NCBI RefSeq assembly: GCF_023638055.1
Contig: NZ_JAKRVY010000005.1
Location: forward strand, 1 to 64,000
Direction: 5' to 3'
DNA: 64,000 nt
DNA from: Natranaeroarchaeum aerophilus
GTDB lineage: Archaea; Halobacteriota; Halobacteria; Halobacteriales; Natronoarchaeaceae
Shown here: piece by piece, positions 1 to 9,986 of the stretch
How positions within the stretch are numbered: position 1 is the first letter of the stretch
How the letters are laid out: every line of letters begins with the position of its first letter
Notes under the pieces: generated by a model
Told to the model about the DNA's origin: nothing
Database searches by the model: none
The model's input: the letters and a program-made list of their open reading frames with translations, nothing else
Position numbers and translations under genes: made by a program

Positions 1-71
1 CAACTTCCTAGTTCTGACGGTTCGTTCCGGTGCTGTCTAGTGATTCACCAGAGCCAAATCACCCATCGTTT

Positions 72-992
72 ATGACTACTCTTAGTACAGAGGCAGAGGA
101 ACTCCACCGGAGTCTTATTCAAGACTACGTATCTTCCATCAGAGAGAATGGAATCAATGACGCGTCCAAATACCTTGAAGAATTGAATGCGTTTCAGGAA
201 GGCCGGATCACTGACAAAAAAGAGGTCAGAGAGTTCTTGCAAGATGCCGATTTTCCTTTAGAGATTTTTTATCGAGTGGCACCGACCATCGATCAGGACG
301 TGATGATTGCGACGTTGAACCCAGGGATGCAGAGTACGATTGAACTTTCTACATTCACGGATGGCGAGTACCGCCGTCAGTATGAGGCAGGAGCCGATCT
401 CTGTCATAAGGCTTCTATCGTTGCATCAAACTTGGACGGTTTCTTGACACATAATAAGAATAGTTTCGCGGAGTTAATTGAGATTCTCCGCGAGGAGCTA
501 GATTTGATGGACGGATCCGGCCAATTGGAGGACTATTTGAACTACGGTGGAGATTCCTCGCCAGACGGTTTCTTTGATGAAGTTTGCTATACTTGGATGT
601 ACAAGTTAGCGACTCAAGATATTGGTTATATCGATGATCTCGGCGGTCCTGACTACGGGTTTGCAAGGGAACGTTTCGCGGAGGAGGTTTTCGATGTCGT
701 TGATCCGAAAGTATTGGTCAGCGTCGGGAAGCATGGTTGGGTCACTGTTTGGGAGTATCTTGAACGTAATTACTCTGAACGTCCAGAGGACCTTATTGAA
801 GCTTATTCGGACGAAGTTCCGGTGACGAAGAGTTTCAACTCGACGTTCAGAGAAGGTGCCTACGCAGGCCTGTTCTACGTGGAGGTCGAAGATTTGTGGG
901 TAATTACAACATGGCACGCCAGTCACTGGATTAAGTCTGACCGGCTTCGAGAGAACGCCCGTGTGTTGAATAGCGAACTAAATCCAAGCTAA
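72..992 (+). CDS. Uncharacterised protein with weak uracil-DNA-glycosylase-like motifs
   Basis: This 306-aa protein is not recognised with certainty. After a helical N-terminal part there is a strand ending in a TLNPG motif (about residues 82-85), and near the C-terminus a strand ending in a TWHASHW motif (about residues 280-286). This arrangement recalls motif 1 (GxNPG) and motif 2 (HPS) of the uracil-DNA-glycosylase superfamily. A segment reading VLVSVGKHGW lies between them. The assignment is by motif only and may be wrong. The ATG at 72 was preferred over an upstream GTG at 30 because the first 14 residues of the longer form look non-conserved. It is the first gene of a defence-like island. 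Confidence 0.5.
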   Translation: MTTLSTEAEELHRSLIQDYVSSIRENGINDASKYLEELNAFQEGRITDKKEVREFLQDADFPLEIFYRVAPTIDQDVMIATLNPGMQSTIELSTFTDGEYRRQYEAGADLCHKASIVASNLDGFLTHNKNSFAELIEILREELDLMDGSGQLEDYLNYGGDSSPDGFFDEVCYTWMYKLATQDIGYIDDLGGPDYGFARERFAEEVFDVVDPKVLVSVGKHGWVTVWEYLERNYSERPEDLIEAYSDEVPVTKSFNSTFREGAYAGLFYVEVEDLWVITTWHASHWIKSDRLRENARVLNSELNPS

Positions 993-1274
993 TCTGTAGT
1001 CGGATACTTCATTGAATACGCAGAGCTATTAACTGGTATTCCAATGCGTTTCAGTATGAAACAGACAAATCTACCGTCCTGCAGGTGCGCTCTACATTCA
1101 GCGCAGATCTTCTATTAATTTCCAAGGTCTTCAACAGAGACAAAACATCACCTTTCTTCAATAGTGGATTACGAGACCAGTGTCATGGTAGTTGAATTAC
1201 GCTATACGAAAGTAACCATTTCCAGGAAATGCAAGGTAGCTTAATAATGCTGGCCCGAAAATCCGTCTAGAAAC

Positions 1275-2471
1275 ATGGACGATGATGCGGTGAGAGAGTA
1301 CACTCAGCAGACACAAGCCATAATTGATGATTCACCGCAAATGGGTGAGGCAACCACTAAGGCTGCTATTTTACGGAACTTCCTCGATCTTCTCGGATGG
1401 GAAATTCCAAAAAACACGCAGTTGGAGTACTCTGTCAAGGCCTTTGGAAGGACCTTCCGAGTGGACTATGCGCTAGTCTTGGATGGTATGCCAGTTGCGT
1501 TTCTCGAAGCAAAGGGGCTCGATACAGCACTCTCAGACGACAATAGAGAGCAGATCAAGGAGTACATGAAAAGCGAGGACGTGAATCTGGGCATTCTCAC
1601 GAATGGTGAGGAGTACGAGTTCTTCCGACGCGAAGTAGTGGATTCGAGAGTGAACGTAAATAGGCTCACAAAGGCCCACGTCAAGGAGCTCCCAGAGATA
1701 CTGACGATCTTGGAAGCGTTTCAGAAGGATAACATCCAGAATGAGGAGTGGGTGAATATCCTCAACAAGATACGGGAGCTGGAACGGACCCGAACAGAAC
1801 TGGAGAACCGAAAAGACGAATTTGCGACTGTTCTTGCAAAGGAGTTGGCCGAGAATGTCCCCGGCGATATTACGTCTCAGGCCACGGTGCAGGCGAAAGA
1901 GATGATCGATCGACTCATCCAGGACATCAACACGGACGAGGATGATGGTGAGCAATCTCAGTCACAGGGGCCCAATAAATCGATTCAAAAGAAACCGATT
2001 GAAAAGAGCACGATAGGCTCTACGGAAAGCGCAATAACAGGAACTCTCAGCCGGAACGAGGTTGATGGTCCGAGTGATGCAGAGGTTGTTGTATTCCCAA
2101 CGAAGCAGTCGGGCGTAGACTTCCTGAAGGAGAACAACGCATGGGGCTTCGTTCGAATTGGCCGAGAGCCTGACTTCGCCGCTATGTATGTCTCAGGGGA
2201 TGATCAAGAAGTGAAATATATTGCGAGAGTGGCGGAAGTCGTTTCAGCACAGGATGCAGACCTCGCCCGTCCACTAGAAGCGTACTCTGAATCTGGTTCC
2301 GAAGACGCCCAGGCTGGCTTCGACCCGAACAAGAAGGTTGTGGTGTTTGAAGAGAACTCGCTGTACGAAATAGAAGACCCAATTCCATTCGAAAACAAGT
2401 GGCCGCAGTCGCTTCGATATACCACGCTGGGGGACCTTCGGAACGCGAAGAACACCGACGAACTGTTGTGA
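1275..2471 (+). CDS. HsdR N-terminal-type PD-(D/E)XK nuclease-like protein
   Basis: The first 130 residues of this 398-aa protein match the type I restriction enzyme R-subunit N-terminal fold. D64 in a VDYAL strand is followed by E78-A-K80 in a VAFLEAKG strand, and then by an LGILTNGEEYEF segment typical of the family. Residues about 155-185 form a charged coiled coil. A low-complexity linker follows, then a C-terminal domain of about 130 residues that I do not recognise. There is no helicase or methyltransferase domain, so it is not a complete HsdR. It may be a nuclease or a sensor in a small defence system. It runs in the same direction as the NucS-like gene 77 nt downstream. Confidence 0.7.
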   Translation: MDDDAVREYTQQTQAIIDDSPQMGEATTKAAILRNFLDLLGWEIPKNTQLEYSVKAFGRTFRVDYALVLDGMPVAFLEAKGLDTALSDDNREQIKEYMKSEDVNLGILTNGEEYEFFRREVVDSRVNVNRLTKAHVKELPEILTILEAFQKDNIQNEEWVNILNKIRELERTRTELENRKDEFATVLAKELAENVPGDITSQATVQAKEMIDRLIQDINTDEDDGEQSQSQGPNKSIQKKPIEKSTIGSTESAITGTLSRNEVDGPSDAEVVVFPTKQSGVDFLKENNAWGFVRIGREPDFAAMYVSGDDQEVKYIARVAEVVSAQDADLARPLEAYSESGSEDAQAGFDPNKKVVVFEENSLYEIEDPIPFENKWPQSLRYTTLGDLRNAKNTDELL

Positions 2472-2548
2472 GCGTGCTCGATTGACGAAGTTTCTTATCA
2501 ACGTGCAGGAGAGCTAATAGTTGCTATGGCAATACGGGGTACATCTAT

Positions 2549-3307
2549 ATGGTCGTAGACCAGATCATAGAGCCTGATTTTGAGACTCTCAAAAGTACAC
2601 TTTCAGCGGCACAAGGACTGAATAAGGTACTCGTGATTTTTGCGAATTGCTCTGTCGAGTGGAGTGGAGATAGGAACGGTTCCATTGGTGTTGGACAACG
2701 AATTATCCTGTGTAAGCCTGATGGAGCTGTCTCAGTTCACCGTCCAAATTGGGCTCAAGCAATCGCCCGGCAGGGAGTAAATAGCACGCTTGAGCTGTAT
2801 TCCAAGGAAGATGGTTTTCTCCTCTATGGTAGCAAATCGAAGGGTAGCAACACAATACGTATTCATCTCATGGACGTCGCACTGGCGGTGGTCTACGATG
2901 CTTCAGATGACGTTGAGCCAGTGCACAGGGAAACTGAGGATGAAATGCACAAATTCATCGAATCCAACCCGGAAGTTCTAGAAGATGGGTTACGGATACT
3001 GCATCACGAATACCCCACCGACGTGGGCAGGATAGATTTCGTGGCTGCTGACAAGGAGGGGAATCAGGTCATTATTGAGATCAAAATTCGATATGCAGAG
3101 CTCTCGGATGTTGATCAGCTACAGCGATATGTGAAACATTGTAATCGTACTAGTCAAGCATCAGTGAGGGGTATTCTGGTAGCGCCTGAGTTCGGAGAGA
3201 AAACCAAACGGGAACTCCGTGAAACTGGACTTGAAAAACGTCGAATTACAGAGTTTCAACATCAAGATCTGGGCCCTGAACAATCTTCATTGGGGAATTG
3301 GGAATGA
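2549..3307 (+). CDS. nucS: NucS/EndoMS-type endonuclease
   Basis: This is a full-length (252 aa) DUF91/NucS-family protein. The N-terminal half is the beta-rich DNA-binding and dimerisation domain. The C-terminal half carries the RecB-like nuclease core: G-R-I-D163, then E177-I-K179 in a VIIEIK strand, followed by a DQLQRYV helix. Family members cut near mismatches or at single-stranded flaps and can interact with the sliding clamp. Its place among restriction-type genes and its A/T-rich sequence suggest an accessory copy rather than the housekeeping one, but the rest of the genome cannot be seen. ATG at 2549. Confidence 0.85.
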   Translation: MVVDQIIEPDFETLKSTLSAAQGLNKVLVIFANCSVEWSGDRNGSIGVGQRIILCKPDGAVSVHRPNWAQAIARQGVNSTLELYSKEDGFLLYGSKSKGSNTIRIHLMDVALAVVYDASDDVEPVHRETEDEMHKFIESNPEVLEDGLRILHHEYPTDVGRIDFVAADKEGNQVIIEIKIRYAELSDVDQLQRYVKHCNRTSQASVRGILVAPEFGEKTKRELRETGLEKRRITEFQHQDLGPEQSSLGNWE

Positions 3308-3466
3308 TGGTTCTGCAAAATAACTAATAGACAATGCTTTTTTGAGCCCTGTATTGCTCGCTGATGTTGGTTACCTCACTGTATTCCTCTTGAGAGGACT
3401 TATGTGTCTACTGTATAACTCTTTCCTATATGTCGGATGGGACCGAGTTAGGACCGAGGGCTTGAG

Positions 3467-4183
3467 TCATTCTGAAAATTCTGAGAGTATAGCCTTGTAC
3501 ACTTGATTTGGTGAGAACCTCGAAGAGAAATCAGCCTCAAGCCTATTTCGTTCTTCAACCCGCCAGGAATCACTGGTCTGAGTAGGGTGTTGTTTTGCTT
3601 TGATAGCTCGCTCGATGGTTGGTTTGAGCGAGATTCCATGAAGCGGCTCTGGATCAGAACATCCCACTGGCTTTCCAAACAAAACCCAGTAGACACCGTC
3701 GGTCAAAATACCCACGAGGTACTTTTGCTGGAGACCAGTTCTATATTTGGTTGAAAAATTTTCTTCCAGGTACCCGCGAATTTGCTCAACATCAGAGTTC
3801 TCCTCAAGAGTTGTCTCTTGTCCCAAGAGCGTGAGAGCCTTCGCTTCAACCAGGCAAATGAGGTCCTCATAGTCAGCCTCGACGGCGTAATCTGGTTCCT
3901 TTCGATTGGTGGTGGCAAGTTCACTCGGGCGTGCTCGAATGTTCTCATAACCGAGGGCCTCCAGACAAGGTTCAATGAGGAATTCTTCAGTGAATCGCTC
4001 TGGTCGCTGTCCAACAACATTCCCACCAAGACGTGCACTTGAGGTTAAAATTGTCTGCAATTCACTGAGCTCATTCCGGTCCTGAAACTCCTCGACAAAG
4101 CGTTGGATCTTCGGGAGTGTTCGCTGTGCAGCGAACTGATCTGCGTTCAGAACCGACCCATGGTGCCAGCTGTCTTCAGTCAC
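3467..4183 (-). CDS. Stand-alone PD-(D/E)XK nuclease-like protein (HsdR_N type)
   Basis: This 238-aa protein starts at a GTG. The nuclease signature is D98 in EPDYAV, then E113-A-K115 in an ICLVEAKAL strand, followed by a helix and a YLVGILTDGVYWVLF segment like that of HsdR N-terminal domains. The N-terminal 60 residues are helical and unassigned. It has no helicase or methylase partner domain. It points the same way as the type IIG gene 590 nt away but is separated from it by a long non-coding gap, and it converges on the nucS-like gene. Its role as a nuclease is inferred from motifs. Confidence 0.65.
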   Translation of the reverse strand: MTEDSWHHGSVLNADQFAAQRTLPKIQRFVEEFQDRNELSELQTILTSSARLGGNVVGQRPERFTEEFLIEPCLEALGYENIRARPSELATTNRKEPDYAVEADYEDLICLVEAKALTLLGQETTLEENSDVEQIRGYLEENFSTKYRTGLQQKYLVGILTDGVYWVLFGKPVGCSDPEPLHGISLKPTIERAIKAKQHPTQTSDSWRVEERNRLEADFSSRFSPNQVYKAILSEFSE

Positions 4184-4773
4184 TGAGTACGGCTACTCAC
4201 TAGCAACTGTTAGCTTTAGTTGTTTTACTATCCGACACATTGTAGGAGTCCTGCTGGTGGTCACATCCACGTATGGTCTAAGAGCTCTTTCGAGTTCCAT
4301 GCTACATTACGCAAAAATGATCACAGCTGTTTTGATTTAACCCGCTATTTGCCGGGGTTACGGAAGCCCGGAAATGCGAATATTACCAGTACAGCAGATT
4401 ATCATCCGACAACAACTTTATCACTCATTTTGATAGTGATGGTGTCACCTCCATTGTGACATGTTATTTCCTAATCAAATAAGGGATATGACTCAGTCCA
4501 CTTCACACAGTACAACCTGCGCGTATGGAATTCACTCAAATATCATAGCGACCCTATAGAACCAACGGTTATCAGCAATAACAATCTCTATTCGACTCCT
4601 GGCTGTACGGATTCACGAGATGTTCCACGCGGGTTGAGTTATTATCTATCACAGTGCCCTCAATACGTCGAACAACAACTGGCTATCCCTTTCGTCACAG
4701 GTCCTAAAATCAAGAGCGTAATAGTCAGAGGGTCAACTTGAACTGTTTCTCCCTTCTGGGAGCATTGTAACAC
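4184..4773. other. Long A/T-rich intergenic stretch in the island
   Basis: No convincing gene on either strand; the longest frame (79 codons) has no coding character. It contains a GC-rich interrupted inverted repeat around 4345-4375 (GCCGGGG ... GCCCGG) and the promoter region of the upstream nuclease gene. It also holds the 3' flank of the type IIG gene. Confidence 0.5.
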
Positions 4774-7700
4774 TCAGAACACTTCTAAATAGTTCTCCAC
4801 AACGTCACGTTCTTCTTCAGTCAGGCTAAAAAGATCATATACAGCCGCATCGATGTCGGCTTCCAGTTCGTCAATGTCTATCTTCTCAACTGATTGCTTG
4901 TCTGCTTCCAGAGCACCAAGCAATTGCTCAACCCCCTTTTGAGCTTCTGGAATCGAGATTGTGACATTTTCCCCTTTCTTATATCTGCGACCATTAACCG
5001 CTTCATAGACGTATTCTGCACGAAGTTTGTTTTCTTCAGTGCCCCCTGCGTCGATTACTGGGTGAGAGATCTCGTCAGTGTTGCCTGCGGTCACGACAAA
5101 TCGCCCGTCATTGGTTTCCTCGATACTTGCGTTCACCGGATACCGATTAGTCTGCCACTCGTAGTTAATGTATTCTAATTCACCGTTGTAGTCACCAAGA
5201 TACGCTTCTGGAAAGCGTCCTGTCTTATTTTCAGTATGAAGGGCCGAAAGAATGAGCTCTACGGAATCTTCCATCCGTGAGAATTCCCCGTCACCACTGA
5301 TCATACAGGGGACAGGGGTAATGTATTGATTCAGGTATTCATAGAATCCACCTGCTTTGACCGCAGAAATGTGTTTGAAGTAGAAGTCCAAAGTTTTGGA
5401 GTTCAATTGAGCGGTCATCTCCTGCGCGAGGTCTGCTTTATCTTCCTCAAGCAGGACTGAATAGGGGGTCGTGAAATACCATGTCCCCTCAGTGTCGGAC
5501 ATATACGTAGCTTCGTCCGCAATCTTCGAAAGAATCAGCTTGGGACGTTCGAACCGCTCTAGGTTTTGGGGCCTACTGTACTCATACCACTCCTTGTTAC
5601 CAAGGCTGGAACGCCCTCGAAGTTCATCTTCATGTGCTTCAAAATACTCTAAGGTGAGGGGTAGGTCAGACGATAGGGTTTCTTCATCGATCAACTCGGC
5701 ACTTCCCTGTTCATCGTCGATACCCTCCATTCTGTAGGGATGAACGATATGAAGACCGCCCCAGGTCACCTGCCAACGTTCCACTTCTCTCCCATCAATA
5801 AATGGCCGGAGAGTATCTGTCTCGATTTTGAATTGTTGATCACTTCCAGTGGGAGAAATAGTCACAGTTTCTCCAGAATCATCTGCTGTCACTATATCCG
5901 CATCAAGTACATCCACAATATACACTCCTTTCTTTCCAGTCATTATTCCCTGGAACACTGCGTCCGTAACTTCCCCGATGGTTTGGTCGGCTTCTGACTC
6001 AATCTTTTTGAACACTTCCCACTCGTGTTCCGGCATAATCGGCCACCGAGATTCTGAAAATCTTGACTGGGAGAAATCGAAGATGTCTACGTAGTCATCA
6101 CTATACCCTGGGTTCGCATATTCTTCTCTGAGTGTCTCTACTATCTCTTCATCGAGTTCTTGCTCTCGATCATCATTGATATTTGACTTTACTCGACCAC
6201 ACCGAACAACATTGTTGCTACGCTCAGTCCCGTTCTCCTCCAATTCAAGAATAGTAATAACAGGATAATTTGTGGCATCCTTAAAAACTCCAGAATCTCT
6301 GAAGTCCTGTATTTGTTCTACAACTGCACTTTCCTGAATCAGTTTACGTACTCCTTTGCCGTAGTTGGCAACCAGAAATTGATCCGGAGTAATGAACCCA
6401 AGTTTGTTCCCTTTACTCAACCAGTCCAATCCTCGTTCGAAAAATGGGCAGTATAGGTCATATTGGTCAGTAGTTGAATCTGGATACAATTCAGCTAGCA
6501 TCTCTTTTTGTTTGTTGGGAATGTTTTGACTACTAACGTACGGTGGATTTCCGACGACGTAGTCATACCCCATGTAATTCTTCACCACGAGTGCCAGCAC
6601 GGTGTCCTCAAACATCTTGAAGAGTCTCCCGTCATCGTGGTTCTCTTCCAATTGACGAGAGACCTCCAGCATGTCGTCCACGTATGGTGAGAAGAATTCC
6701 TCTACACCGTCATATTCCTGTGAGGTGTACCGTTCAATACCGGCCTCAAGTCCACCCTGATACTCCCAGTATCCTTCGCTCATATGCCACTTCACGACGT
6801 CCAGCACGCCTTGTAAGGCAGCAAAATACTCTCCGAAATTACCCACCCCGGTTTCCAACTGAATTGTGTCAAACAACGGCATCCTGATTCGCTTCACAAG
6901 GAAACCGTCATCCGTCTCTACACCCGGTGTGTCCGCGTTATCGTCAACTTCGATAGGGAGTGGTACAGGCACGCGAACGTCCTGGTTATCTTCGGTCATC
7001 GCATCCCAGGTCAACTGCCGTTCCTCTGCCTCTCCTATGTCAGCACCGGTCAGTTCACGTTCATTCCGGAGCGTGTCTGCGCGGAAAATCGGCAGTCTAC
7101 GGATGGTGAATTCATGATTTTGTTGCTTCGCCTCCCGATACTCCGGCAAGATAGCAACCATAAACCGGATCTGCGCCATCAATACCGCGAACGGGTGAAT
7201 GTCTACTCCCACAACGTGCGGGTGGGTACACAACTCAGTGAGTTCCTCTGTCCAGTCCGGGTTTTCGTCGTACCGTCGAACGTCTTGGATATACCGGTCA
7301 ATTGCTTCAACGAGGAAAGTACCAGACCCGCATGCCGGGTCAATAACTCGCTGAGAGGAGACACCAACATCATAATCAACACCGTCCATTATATAGTCCA
7401 CAACCGGCTCAGGCGTGTAGAACTCTCCGAGTGCCTTCCGAGTTTCCGGGTCAAAATATCGCTGATAGAGGTTCCCGAGGGGATCACCGGAAATCTTGGC
7501 AAAATCGAACTTCAACACCGCAAACAGTGTATGCGAAATAGCTCGACTAAACCGCTCTCTCGTTGCCTCACTCAATTCTGTGTCCGTCCCTTCTTCCGCG
7601 ACTTCTTTGAACCGAGACGCACCGCTCCCGTGACCGCTCGCTAGTGCTCCCCGATAACTCTCTTTCCACCACGTGAAGATGTCGTCCTCGAACAGACTCT

Positions 7701-8652
7701 CGACGAGCTGTTCTTGCATGTCTTCAATGAGGCTGGCAGCAGCGACGGGGTAGGACTCTAGATCAATTTCTGAAGAGAACCCAGAGAGGCCGGTAAAGTA
7801 GTCATCCATCCCCTCGTATTGGGTTTGCTTGAAGAAGTCGTAGTCCTGCGCAGCTTTCGATAGCAGCAGACGTCCAAGGAGCGCGTGCCCACTTTCCAGA
7901 CAGAACATGAAGTCCTTCAGGTCGGACTTTCGGTTGCTCGGGAGCATCGACTCCCATGAGTCCGGTGTATCTTCAGGGATGTTGGCGTAGCTGGCTTCCC
8001 AGAAGTCGTACGCCCCTTCAACGAACTTTGCTTCTTTGTCGTCGCGCAGTTCGTGCAGTAAGTCCATCATCGCAGTAACAAGATCCGCAAAAACACTCCC
8101 CTCCTCTAAACGGAATGTGTCGAAGAAGTGTTCGCGTCCAAGTTCACCATTGAGTGTAACCGGTTCAAGCCGATTCAGGTAATCGTTCACGCTCTTAGTG
8201 TCAGTAATATCCCATTCCGGTTTCTGTAGAGCTTTGAACGCGTCACGTGCCTGTTGGCCTGTTGCATCGGAGAGTACAATGGTGGAGAGATGTGATTCGT
8301 TGCGGCGGTACAGGCGAAGTTCCTCACCGTTCGTTAGCACCCCGTAGTCGGCCTTCAATTCGTTCACGTAGTGGAACAGTTGGTCGGTGTGGTTGTTGAG
8401 GTCACGACCGCTTGATTTGAATTCATAAACCGTGATGACTGATTCGTTGTCGTCGAGGGTGAGGTAGTCCGGACGCTTGTTGTCCGGAAGCGTCATCTCG
8501 CTTCGCAGGTCGTGGCCCGCGCCCTCGTAGCCCAGAAGAGTGTAGAAATTCTCGTTAAGGAAAGCGTTTTCAACATCCTTCTCGCTCATATCCTCGTTGA
8601 TGCGGCTTCCAATATTGTGGAGGGCGTTAAGGAAATCAGACTGATTTGACAT
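4774..8652 (-). CDS. Type IIG restriction-modification enzyme (Eco57I-like, single chain)
   Basis: This 1292-aa protein joins nuclease and N6-adenine methyltransferase in one chain. The N-terminal PD-(D/E)XK domain shows D62 (RPDYL), then E77-F-K79 (VYEFKSSG). The methyltransferase has motif I DPACGSGTFL at about 438-447, preceded by a GEFYTP segment, and the catalytic NPPY at about 702-705. The remaining ~550 residues resemble the C-terminal target-recognition region of TaqI/Eco57I-type enzymes. No separate S subunit is present, as expected for type IIG/IIL. The ATG at 8652 (MSNQSDF) was chosen over an upstream ATG because the first 23 residues of the longer form lack family character. No frame break is seen, so it may be active. 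Confidence 0.88.
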   Translation of the reverse strand: MSNQSDFLNALHNIGSRINEDMSEKDVENAFLNENFYTLLGYEGAGHDLRSEMTLPDNKRPDYLTLDDNESVITVYEFKSSGRDLNNHTDQLFHYVNELKADYGVLTNGEELRLYRRNESHLSTIVLSDATGQQARDAFKALQKPEWDITDTKSVNDYLNRLEPVTLNGELGREHFFDTFRLEEGSVFADLVTAMMDLLHELRDDKEAKFVEGAYDFWEASYANIPEDTPDSWESMLPSNRKSDLKDFMFCLESGHALLGRLLLSKAAQDYDFFKQTQYEGMDDYFTGLSGFSSEIDLESYPVAAASLIEDMQEQLVESLFEDDIFTWWKESYRGALASGHGSGASRFKEVAEEGTDTELSEATRERFSRAISHTLFAVLKFDFAKISGDPLGNLYQRYFDPETRKALGEFYTPEPVVDYIMDGVDYDVGVSSQRVIDPACGSGTFLVEAIDRYIQDVRRYDENPDWTEELTELCTHPHVVGVDIHPFAVLMAQIRFMVAILPEYREAKQQNHEFTIRRLPIFRADTLRNERELTGADIGEAEERQLTWDAMTEDNQDVRVPVPLPIEVDDNADTPGVETDDGFLVKRIRMPLFDTIQLETGVGNFGEYFAALQGVLDVVKWHMSEGYWEYQGGLEAGIERYTSQEYDGVEEFFSPYVDDMLEVSRQLEENHDDGRLFKMFEDTVLALVVKNYMGYDYVVGNPPYVSSQNIPNKQKEMLAELYPDSTTDQYDLYCPFFERGLDWLSKGNKLGFITPDQFLVANYGKGVRKLIQESAVVEQIQDFRDSGVFKDATNYPVITILELEENGTERSNNVVRCGRVKSNINDDREQELDEEIVETLREEYANPGYSDDYVDIFDFSQSRFSESRWPIMPEHEWEVFKKIESEADQTIGEVTDAVFQGIMTGKKGVYIVDVLDADIVTADDSGETVTISPTGSDQQFKIETDTLRPFIDGREVERWQVTWGGLHIVHPYRMEGIDDEQGSAELIDEETLSSDLPLTLEYFEAHEDELRGRSSLGNKEWYEYSRPQNLERFERPKLILSKIADEATYMSDTEGTWYFTTPYSVLLEEDKADLAQEMTAQLNSKTLDFYFKHISAVKAGGFYEYLNQYITPVPCMISGDGEFSRMEDSVELILSALHTENKTGRFPEAYLGDYNGELEYINYEWQTNRYPVNASIEETNDGRFVVTAGNTDEISHPVIDAGGTEENKLRAEYVYEAVNGRRYKKGENVTISIPEAQKGVEQLLGALEADKQSVEKIDIDELEADIDAAVYDLFSLTEEERDVVENYLEVF

Positions 8653-8924
8653 GTGAATTGATTCTTCTGCGTATACACAAAAAGCTTTCAGAGATCTTGT
8701 GGTTGAATCACATGGTTCCACATGCGTTCTGGGTCCTGAAAATAGACAAAACTCTCAGTAATGCAGTGAACGATTATGTGGCTCCGGACCGTGTTTGGCT
8801 TTAACGAATCGCATGAGGGGAGCATTGGAGTCACGATTCGTGACGAACTCTGGACGGGGTGCCAGCAGTAGATTTATATACACCATGCTGCTGGCTTGTG
8901 AATTCGGAACGTGACGAAGTGTGA

Positions 8925-8999
8925 TGGGCGCTGCAGGATTTGAACCCGCGGCATCTTGGTCCGAAGCCAAGTGCTCTGTCCAAGCTGAGCTAAGCGCCC
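8925..8999 (-). tRNA. tRNA-Arg (anticodon UCG)
   Basis: Read on the minus strand, a complete cloverleaf is visible. The acceptor stem is GGGCGCU/AGCGCCC with discriminator A at 8925. The D-arm contains the usual AGCTCAG...GGA, the anticodon stem CTTGG/CCAAG encloses the loop CTTCGGA (anticodon UCG), and the T-arm has GGTTCAAATCC. CCA is not encoded and there is no intron. The 3' end faces the A/T-rich island. Confidence 0.95.
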
Positions 9000-9023
9000 G
9001 CACGCATAGATCCGGGAAGGGTA

Positions 9024-9033
9024 AAGTTAAACC
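9024..9033 (-). promoter_or_regulatory. Box A promoter of tRNA-Arg
   Basis: On the minus strand the sequence GGTTTAACTT lies about 25-34 nt upstream of the first tRNA base, the expected place for an archaeal TATA box (box A). Confidence 0.5.
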
Positions 9034-9131
9034 CACTGATTTCACGAGCGGTGGTATCCGTGCGAACAAGACTCACTCCGGGGTATTCCGTTTCGCGTCT
9101 TTTATTTCGGGTGCCTTGGAGAGTAGTGTGT

Positions 9132-9986
9132 ATGGACGTCCAGGCGCGGGTGCGTGGCTACGTTGAGTTGACGCGACCGATGAACTCGGTCGCGGCCGGA
9201 GTGTTGACGTTCATCGGTGCGTTCGTCGCCGGGGCATCCACCGAATACGCCCCGCTGGTCGCAGCGGCGGTAGCAGCGACGTCGCTGGCGACCGGAGCTG
9301 GCAACGCGATCAACGACTATTTCGACAGAGAGATCGACCGGATCAATCAGCCGGACCGGCCGATCCCGCGTGGTGCGGTAAGCGAGCGCGGGGCGCTGTG
9401 GTTCAGCATCGTGCTGTTCGCACTCGCCACGGTGCTTGCTCTGACGCTCCCGCCGCTTGCGATCGGTATTGCGGCGTTCAACCTCATTGCACTGATCGCG
9501 TACACCGAGTTCTTCAAGGGATTGCCGGGACTTGGAAACGCGCTGGTTGCGTATCTCGGCGGCAGTACGTTCCTGTTCGGGGGGGCCGCCGTCGGTGACG
9601 TGAGGGCTGCAGGAGTCCTGTTCGTGCTGGCGGCGCTCTCGACGTTGACCAGAGAGATCATCAAGGATGTCGAGGATATCGACGGTGACCGTGAGGAAGG
9701 GCTGAACACGCTCCCGATCGCAATCGGGGAGCGCAAAGCGTTGCATGTCGGCACTGTCCTGTTGCTCGTTGCTGTTCTCGTCAGCCCGGTTCCGTATCTA
9801 CAGGGGTCGTTCGGGATCGGGTACGTCCTCGTCGTCGCTCCCGCGGTCGCAGTAATGGTATTTGCCGCGATACGAAGTTACGATCTCCCGCGAGCTGGCC
9901 AGCAGTATCTCAAATACGGCATGTTTTTGGCAGCACTCGCGTTTATTATCGGGCGGCTGGGCGTCGTCTTTCCGTGGCCAGTGTGA
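9132..9986 (+). CDS. ubiA: UbiA-family prenyltransferase, probable digeranylgeranylglyceryl phosphate synthase
   Basis: This 284-aa polytopic membrane enzyme has the UbiA Asp-rich motif NAINDYFDREID at about residues 57-68, followed by NQPDRPIPRG. A second Asp motif DVEDIDGDREEG lies near residue 180. The NRPDRPIPRG-like signature and short length match archaeal enzymes that add the second geranylgeranyl chain to geranylgeranylglyceryl phosphate in membrane lipid synthesis. About eight to nine hydrophobic segments are visible. The ATG at 9132 was chosen because an upstream in-frame ATG at 9051 adds 27 basic, unlikely residues that overlap the tRNA promoter region. Confidence 0.88.
   Translation: MDVQARVRGYVELTRPMNSVAAGVLTFIGAFVAGASTEYAPLVAAAVAATSLATGAGNAINDYFDREIDRINQPDRPIPRGAVSERGALWFSIVLFALATVLALTLPPLAIGIAAFNLIALIAYTEFFKGLPGLGNALVAYLGGSTFLFGGAAVGDVRAAGVLFVLAALSTLTREIIKDVEDIDGDREEGLNTLPIAIGERKALHVGTVLLLVAVLVSPVPYLQGSFGIGYVLVVAPAVAVMVFAAIRSYDLPRAGQQYLKYGMFLAALAFIIGRLGVVFPWPV

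What the first reader, a model, noticed from the sequence alone, without database searches (positions are those of the whole stretch)
72..8652. Nuclease-rich accessory island: four PD-(D/E)XK proteins and a glycosylase-like protein in 8.6 kb
Seen directly: three HsdR-N-type nuclease signatures (D64/E78/K80; D98/E113/K115; D62/E77/K79), a NucS-type signature (D163/E177/K179) and a TLNPG/TWHASH protein, all in sequence visibly more A/T-rich than the rest. Established: HsdR-N and type IIG are restriction components, and NucS acts on mismatched or branched DNA. Inference: the non-R-M genes may form an undescribed defence unit, with the glycosylase-like protein marking or sensing modified bases and the nucleases cutting.
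Basis: partly seen in the sequence, partly recalled or inferred. Interest (0 to 1): 0.72.

Follow-up and report, generated by a model that had tools for sequence, protein, structure and literature searches.

The report
Haloarchaeal defence island with altered NucS
A foreign DNA island beside a tRNA gene in a salt-loving archaeon carries five unrelated DNA-attacking genes that do not form one machine, but one of them is a repair nuclease (NucS) whose mismatch-reading pocket has been replaced in a whole family found in defence islands, so it probably senses something other than mismatches.

Summary
Four PD-(D/E)XK proteins with the stated catalytic residues and one uracil-glycosylase-like protein lie in 8.9 kb of A/T-rich DNA. 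This is an insertion: a same-genus genome resumes collinearity exactly at the 3' end of tRNA-Arg (window 8924), and the left core flank is on another contig (C10). The island's left part is not fully assembled.

The 'undescribed unit' reading is not supported. Homologues of the first four genes were read in about 10 kb of context at 44 loci elsewhere, and no two ever occur together.

Individually they look like defence genes: a type IIG restriction-modification enzyme; a PD-(D/E)XK nuclease fused to an ASCH (PUA-like) domain, the architecture of modification-dependent restriction enzymes; a rare UDG-superfamily protein (Brig-like by analogy); an orphan PD-(D/E)XK nuclease; and a second NucS.

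That NucS is the real find. It belongs to a clade (8 members, 100/100 support) that keeps the catalytic D/E/K but has replaced the EndoMS mismatch pocket (R44, R72, N76, W77, R98) with a conserved ARA[IV]ARQG motif. Its relatives lie in defence islands; in 2-3 of 7 loci they lie beside 7-deazaguanine (Dpd/BRIGADE-like) or Nmad3 genes. The housekeeping NucS is intact elsewhere. Function is inferred, not shown.

The parts
1..8924 (.). Right part of an A/T-rich genomic island inserted next to tRNA-Arg(TCG); its left end lies on another contig (C10:1-1101, VapBC-like pair), with an unassembled gap between
   Evidence: Same-genus genome G033 aligns (92%) only from window 8924 on; the G033 sequence left of the tRNA is at G000 C10:1102-3521(-); GC drop
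72..992 (+). UDG-superfamily-like protein (306 aa), rare: 6 of 391 genomes of the class
   Evidence: TLNPG/TWHASH; AF2 model of low confidence but its 22 best PDB matches are all UDG superfamily; homologues hit Pfam UDG at 3e-4 to 0.02; survey
1275..2471 (+). PD-(D/E)XK (HSDR_N) nuclease with C-terminal ASCH/PUA-like domain, candidate modification-dependent (type IV-like) endonuclease
   Evidence: Pfam HSDR_N; AF2 mean pLDDT 78.8; Foldseek hits DrdV/HsdR and ZmASCH
2549..3307 (+). Accessory NucS/EndoMS paralogue with catalytic triad kept and mismatch pocket replaced (ARA[IV]ARQG in the clade; AQAIARQG here); PIP-like C-terminal QSSLGNW
   Evidence: Pfam NucS_N+NucS_C; 5gke/2vld matches; residue table; tree; clade alignment
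3467..4183 (-). Orphan PD-(D/E)XK nuclease-like protein (238 aa); matches in 88 of 391 genomes, full-length ones (E<1e-15) in about 25
   Evidence: Invariant P97 D98 E113 A114 K115 in 10 homologues; survey; two homologues hit HSDR_N weakly
4774..8652 (-). Type IIG restriction-modification enzyme: PD-(D/E)XK N-terminus, N6-adenine methyltransferase (DPACGSG, NPPY), TaqI-type specificity domain
   Evidence: Pfam Eco57I, N6_Mtase, TaqI_C; PADLOC REase_MTase_IIG; structure relatives; motifs
8925..8999 (-). tRNA-Arg(TCG), 3' end facing the island: insertion site
   Evidence: ARAGORN, Rfam tRNA, alignment break at 8924

Best explanation
The region is the right end of a genomic island inserted at the 3' side of tRNA-Arg in a haloarchaeon. 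It holds independently acquired anti-virus / anti-foreign-DNA genes, not one operonic system. The type IIG enzyme methylates the host and cuts unmethylated DNA. The HSDR_N-ASCH protein most likely reads a modified base with its PUA-like domain and cuts. The UDG-like protein most likely flips and excises a non-standard base, as Brig glycosylases do. The accessory NucS most likely docks on the PCNA clamp through its C-terminal QxSfxxW, flips bases into a rebuilt N-domain pocket and cuts both strands, so that it acts on a base other than a mismatch, possibly a 7-deazaguanine-type modification. Shown: gene content, insertion, lack of linkage, the intact housekeeping NucS, and the clade-wide pocket swap with catalytic residues kept. 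Inferred: every substrate, PCNA binding, and defence activity.
For: Insertion. No linkage among the four genes. NucS catalytic residues kept, pocket residues replaced (EndoMS Y41/R44/N76/W77 roles from PMC6829318). Within the clade (mean 53% identity) 6 of 8 pocket-loop columns are invariant against 28% overall, so the pocket is rebuilt rather than decaying. Single clade, 100/100, stem 1.29. Every other haloarchaeal NucS compared keeps the Trp, and all but two keep Asn-Trp; a haloviral copy keeps Tyr/Arg/Asn-Trp. Neighbours of clade members: Nmad3 gene overlapping NucS plus DpdH/J/K-like and two TGT genes (G107), DpdA/DpdC-like/TGT/EVE (G386), the same BrxD-like pair and a TGT end (G365), Eco57I-type RM (G437), Mrr and TmtA-like (G053). 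ASCH fold. UDG fold. Precedents: EVE/ASCH readers (PMC7641849), Brig glycosylases (PMC13160076).
Against: No experiment. The window genome has no extra TGT or Dpd gene, so the 7-deazaguanine link comes from relatives only; TGT near 3/7 clade loci against 1/36 other loci (Fisher p 0.01) was chosen after looking, and two clade loci (G201, G368) show no such genes. The UDG model has mean pLDDT 52 and no Foldseek match below E 0.001. Foldseek gave no residue ranges, and no Pfam ASCH/PUA model hit the gene at 1275. The PIP-like tail is a short motif. The island's left part is not assembled, and no integrase or second att copy was seen.
Confidence: 0.55

Rival explanations
1. The genes from 72 to 3307 (or to 4183) form one new defence system in which the glycosylase marks bases and the nucleases cut.
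For: Three consecutive + strand genes, with 77 bp between the second and third; all act on DNA.
Against: No two of the genes co-occur in 44 homologue neighbourhoods; gene 72 and the island-clade NucS are in different genomes; 283 bp separate genes 72 and 1275.
Confidence: 0.05
2. The accessory NucS is simply a redundant or decaying copy of the mismatch-repair NucS, carried along on a mobile element.
For: Full NucS_N + NucS_C architecture; accessory NucS copies also occur on plasmids and in a halovirus.
Against: Catalytic triad kept in all 8 members at 42-88% identity; the pocket loop is replaced by an equally conserved motif; the halovirus copy keeps the mismatch pocket.
Confidence: 0.25
3. 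The accessory NucS clade belongs to Dpd/BRIGADE-type 7-deazaguanine restriction-modification systems as their cutting or sensing nuclease, and the copy in this window is an orphan of such a system.
For: Dpd-like genes next to it in G107 and G386, probably G365; BRIGADE systems are exclusive to halophilic archaea and have a PLD or PD-(D/E)XK nuclease in the neighbourhood (PMC12458937).
Against: Absent from the other four loci and from the window genome outside the assembly gap; G107 also has a DpdK-like PLD protein, so NucS need not be the cutter.
Confidence: 0.25
4. The UDG-like protein is an ordinary uracil or thymine repair glycosylase.
For: Best structure matches are MUG and TDG.
Against: Rare (6/391 genomes), patchy, divergent, no Pfam hit of its own, tyrosine recombinase-like neighbours in one locus.
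Confidence: 0.25

Closest known systems
EndoMS/NucS (Thermococcus kodakarensis 5gke, Pyrococcus abyssi 2vld)
   Same: Same two domains over the full length, catalytic E179/K181 and Asp equivalents kept
   Different: R44, R72, N76, W77 and R98 of the mismatch pocket replaced by D/N/G/A, A, A, R, K; a PIP-like tail of another sequence
Dpd and BRIGADE 7-deazaguanine systems
   Same: Relatives of the gene at 2549 lie beside DpdA/C/H/J/K-like and TGT genes in G386 and G107
   Different: None of these genes is present around the window copy; NucS is not named in the texts read (PMC6884629, PMC12458937)
Modification-dependent (type IV) endonucleases with PUA-superfamily readers (EVE-HNH, SRA fusions)
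   Same: Nuclease fused to a PUA-like domain (gene at 1275)
   Different: HSDR_N-type nuclease with ASCH-like domain; specificity unknown
Brig1/2/3 anti-phage DNA glycosylases
   Same: UDG superfamily protein in an accessory island
   Different: Only superfamily-level resemblance; no sequence test of membership was made
Type IIG restriction-modification enzymes (Eco57I/DrdV type)
   Same: All domains and motifs present
   Different: Nothing notable

Membership tests
NucS/EndoMS mismatch endonuclease | NucS_N and NucS_C domains over full length | tested here: met
   Pfam 2e-12 and 6e-25; PDB 5gke 3.8e-32
NucS/EndoMS mismatch endonuclease | Catalytic D165/E179/K181 equivalents | tested here: met
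   D163, E177, K179
NucS/EndoMS mismatch endonuclease | Mismatch-base pocket Y41, R44, N76, W77 | tested here: not met
   W, D, A, R in the window protein; same kind of loss in all 8 clade members
NucS/EndoMS mismatch endonuclease | Above NCBIfam endonuclease NucS equivalog cut-off | tested here: not met
   189.5 bits against cut-off 216
NucS/EndoMS mismatch endonuclease | Binds PCNA and cleaves mismatched dsDNA | not testable with these tools
   PIP-like QxSfxxW tail seen only as sequence
UDG superfamily | UDG fold | tested here: inconclusive
   22 best PDB matches all UDG superfamily but E >= 0.025 on a pLDDT 52 model; Pfam UDG below cut-off in homologues
UDG superfamily | NPG motif A and C-terminal H.S motif | tested here: met
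   NPG invariant in 6 proteins; the H/S motif varies (WHASH, KHGSY, YQESR, RHPAV)
Brig-type anti-phage glycosylase | Excises modified phage bases and protects | not testable with these tools
   Analogy only (PMC13160076)
Type IV (modification-dependent) endonuclease | Nuclease domain plus PUA-superfamily reader | tested here: met
   HSDR_N by Pfam; ASCH by fold only
Type IV (modification-dependent) endonuclease | Cuts only modified DNA | not testable with these tools
   No activity data
Type IIG restriction-modification | PD-(D/E)XK, N6-MTase motifs I and IV, specificity domain in one chain | tested here: met
Dpd/BRIGADE system | DpdA/TGT and 7-deazaguanine genes with the locus | tested here: not met
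   Not in the window; the genome has only two TGT hits, at C5:193881 and C5:195884, taken as the housekeeping TgtA/ArcS pair; the gap at the left of the contig is not covered

The most novel reading that the evidence does not exclude
A clade of NucS has been recruited from mismatch repair into antiviral defence in haloarchaea: its base-flipping pocket was rebuilt to read a modified base (for instance a 7-deazaguanine) or its absence, making NucS a clamp-guided, modification-sensing restriction nuclease.
Probability: 0.3. Interest if true: 0.75.

Novelty: new variant of a known kind. Interest (0 to 1): 0.5.

Why it matters
NucS is known as the mismatch-repair nuclease of archaea and actinobacteria. 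A clade that keeps the scissors but swaps the base-reading pocket, and sits among DNA-modification and restriction genes, would show how a repair enzyme becomes an immune one, much as Brig glycosylases did from UDGs. It gives a direct experiment: one protein family, a defined eight-residue loop, and haloviruses known to carry 7-deazaguanines (HVTV-1, PMC6884629).

Tried and rejected
A conserved operon of the first three or four genes: rejected. The gene at 2549 as the housekeeping NucS: rejected, an intact canonical copy is on C12 (the TAG listed by the search is that gene's own stop). tRNA attachment repeat: only one copy of the tRNA 3' end in the genome, and no direct repeats of 16 or more in 1-9200. 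Genome-contig scans by peptide pattern with genes 72 and 3467 found no relatives; viral contigs gave none for the NucS, and the gene-72 alignment was too diverse to scan with. No plasmid relatives of gene 72; no phage relatives of one homologue. PADLOC and NCBIfam gave nothing for genes 72 and 3467, nor PHROGs. No Rfam family besides the tRNA. Literature: no paper holds both DpdA and NucS; the NucS review read does not mention paralogues.

Full report
OBSERVATION. The window is the first 64 kb of contig C5 of a draft haloarchaeal genome (3.29 Mb, 32 contigs). GC is 0.45-0.53 for the first 9 kb and mostly 0.55-0.66 after. The only tRNA in the window, tRNA-Arg(TCG) at 8925-8999 on the minus strand, ends the A/T-rich stretch, its 3' end facing it.

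INSERTION. In a same-genus genome (G033, one contig) the sequence matches the window at 92% from 8924 rightwards and not at all to the left. The G033 sequence that lies left of the tRNA is found in our genome at C10:1102-3521, minus strand, 89%. C10:1-1101, GC 0.50, carries a PIN-domain protein and a small partner, a VapBC-like pair. So the island runs from C10:1101 through an unassembled gap of unknown size into window 1-8924. No integrase and no second copy of the tRNA 3' end were found.

NOT A UNIT. I surveyed 391 genomes of the class for each of the first four genes. Gene 72 is in 6 genomes, gene 3467 has matches in 88, gene 1275 in 180; NucS matches are in 363, nearly all of them housekeeping or other copies. 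I read about 10 kb on each side of 43 homologues: no two of the four genes meet in any of them, nor in a 44th. Genomes with gene 72 and genomes with close relatives of the NucS at 2549 do not overlap.

GENE 72. No family library hits the protein itself above noise. Six homologues align over NPG and share a (V/L)(D/E/N)P.(V/L) stretch followed by an invariant Trp. The AlphaFold model is poor (mean pLDDT 52, pTM 0.58), yet its 22 best PDB matches are all UDG-superfamily enzymes: MUG, TDG, family 4 and UdgX, with SMUG1 further down (E 0.025 and up). Three homologues hit Pfam UDG at 3e-4, 0.013 and 0.02, below the cut-off. I take it as a divergent UDG-superfamily protein. Brig1 and Brig3 are UDG-superfamily anti-phage enzymes (PMC13160076), which makes base excision from viral DNA the natural guess; membership in that group was not tested.

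GENE 1275. It has an HSDR_N nuclease domain, found in all 20 full-length homologues. A 20-sequence model (mean pLDDT 78.8) matches the nuclease end of DrdV and HsdR, and also several chains of the Zymomonas mobilis ASCH domain and human TRIP4 ASCH. ASCH is a PUA-like fold; some ASCH domains are predicted to bind modified bases (PMC7641849). I infer that the C-terminal half (about 255-398), whose strands fit a PUA-like barrel, is that domain; the tool gave no residue ranges and no Pfam ASCH model hits it. A nuclease plus PUA-like reader is the design of modification-dependent endonucleases.

GENE 3467 AND THE TYPE IIG GENE. Gene 3467 is a stand-alone PD-(D/E)XK protein with invariant PD and EAK in ten homologues; some homologues lie near methyltransferase genes. 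The gene at 4774-8652 is an ordinary type IIG enzyme.

THE NucS. The gene at 2549 is a full-length NucS, while the housekeeping copy is intact on C12. A table of 53 NucS sequences shows three haloarchaeal groups: canonical (Asn-Trp-Gln-Pro-Pro, no long tail); a second group with Asn-Trp, mostly Asn-Trp-Met-Pro and a C-terminal (T/K)L(T/S)DF tail; and the island group. In the island group the residues that in T. kodakarensis EndoMS hold the flipped base and backbone (Y41, R44, R72, N76, W77, R98; PMC6829318) read W/F/Y, D/N/G/A, A, A, R, K, while D165/E179/K181 are kept. The replaced loop, ARA[IV]ARQG (AQAIARQG in the window protein), is invariant at 6 of 8 columns although 28% of gap-free columns overall are invariant at mean identity 53%. 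The group is one clade with 100/100 support and a long stem (1.29 changes per site). A NucS from halovirus HGTV-1 keeps Tyr, Arg and Asn-Trp, so mobility alone does not explain the change. Seven of the eight members end in Q-x-S/T-f-x-x-W or a close variant, resembling a PCNA-interacting peptide (the G201 copy appears frameshifted at the end). That is a motif, not a test.

NEIGHBOURHOODS OF THE CLADE. G107 (L100): the NucS gene overlaps an Nmad3 gene (4.9e-37), near DpdH-, DpdJ- and DpdK-like proteins and two TGT-like proteins. G386 (L101): DpdA (7.9e-74), DpdC-like, a second TGT, a BrxD-like ATPase and a weak EVE hit. G365 (L096): the same BrxD-like pair, with the tail of the second TGT at the contig edge (77% identical). 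G437 (L189): an Eco57I-type enzyme. G053 (L099): an Mrr protein related to the EVE protein, and a TmtA-like protein. G201 and G368: nothing clear. TGT genes lie near 3 of 7 clade loci and 1 of 36 other loci (p 0.01), a comparison made after seeing the pattern. BRIGADE systems, Dpd-like and exclusive to halophilic archaea, are reported to have PLD or PD-(D/E)XK nucleases nearby (PMC12458937); that text does not name NucS, but part of this link may already lie in its supplement.

CONCLUSION. The region is a defence-type genomic island with unlinked genes. The whole is ordinary. The NucS clade with a rebuilt base pocket is, as far as I could find, undescribed, and gives a sharp test of whether a mismatch-repair nuclease became a modification-sensing one.

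Noticed in passing
L043-L065 (e.g. L055, L062, L064): A second haloarchaeal NucS group keeps the mismatch pocket (mostly NWMPGG) but has a C-terminal (T/K)L(T/S)DF tail that canonical haloarchaeal NucS lacks; many sampled genomes of family f2 have it beside a canonical copy.
   Followed up: partly
L191 247-915 (halovirus HGTV-1 gene 43): The halovirus protein annotated 'RecB-like nuclease' is a NucS with intact mismatch pocket, next to a Holliday junction resolvase gene.
   Followed up: partly
L140 1-1101 (G000 C10): Left end of the same island carries a VapBC-like pair (PIN_2 9e-34); the contig then breaks.
   Followed up: partly
L141 (G000 C21, 7885 bp, GC 0.47): Small A/T-rich contig with a 1049-aa Mrr-type restriction protein; could be part of this or another island.
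   Followed up: no
L190 9489-9629 (G315): Remnant of an island-clade NucS (first 47 residues, 72% identical) near core genes that look like leuS and the large subunit of DNA polymerase D.
   Followed up: no
L100 (G107) and L101 (G386): Dpd/BRIGADE-like 7-deazaguanine gene clusters in haloarchaea, one with an Nmad3 gene overlapping the NucS gene.
   Followed up: partly
L013 3780-11027 (G254): Gene-72 homologue flanked by two tyrosine-recombinase-like genes and two copies of an endonuclease III/MutY-like gene.
   Followed up: no
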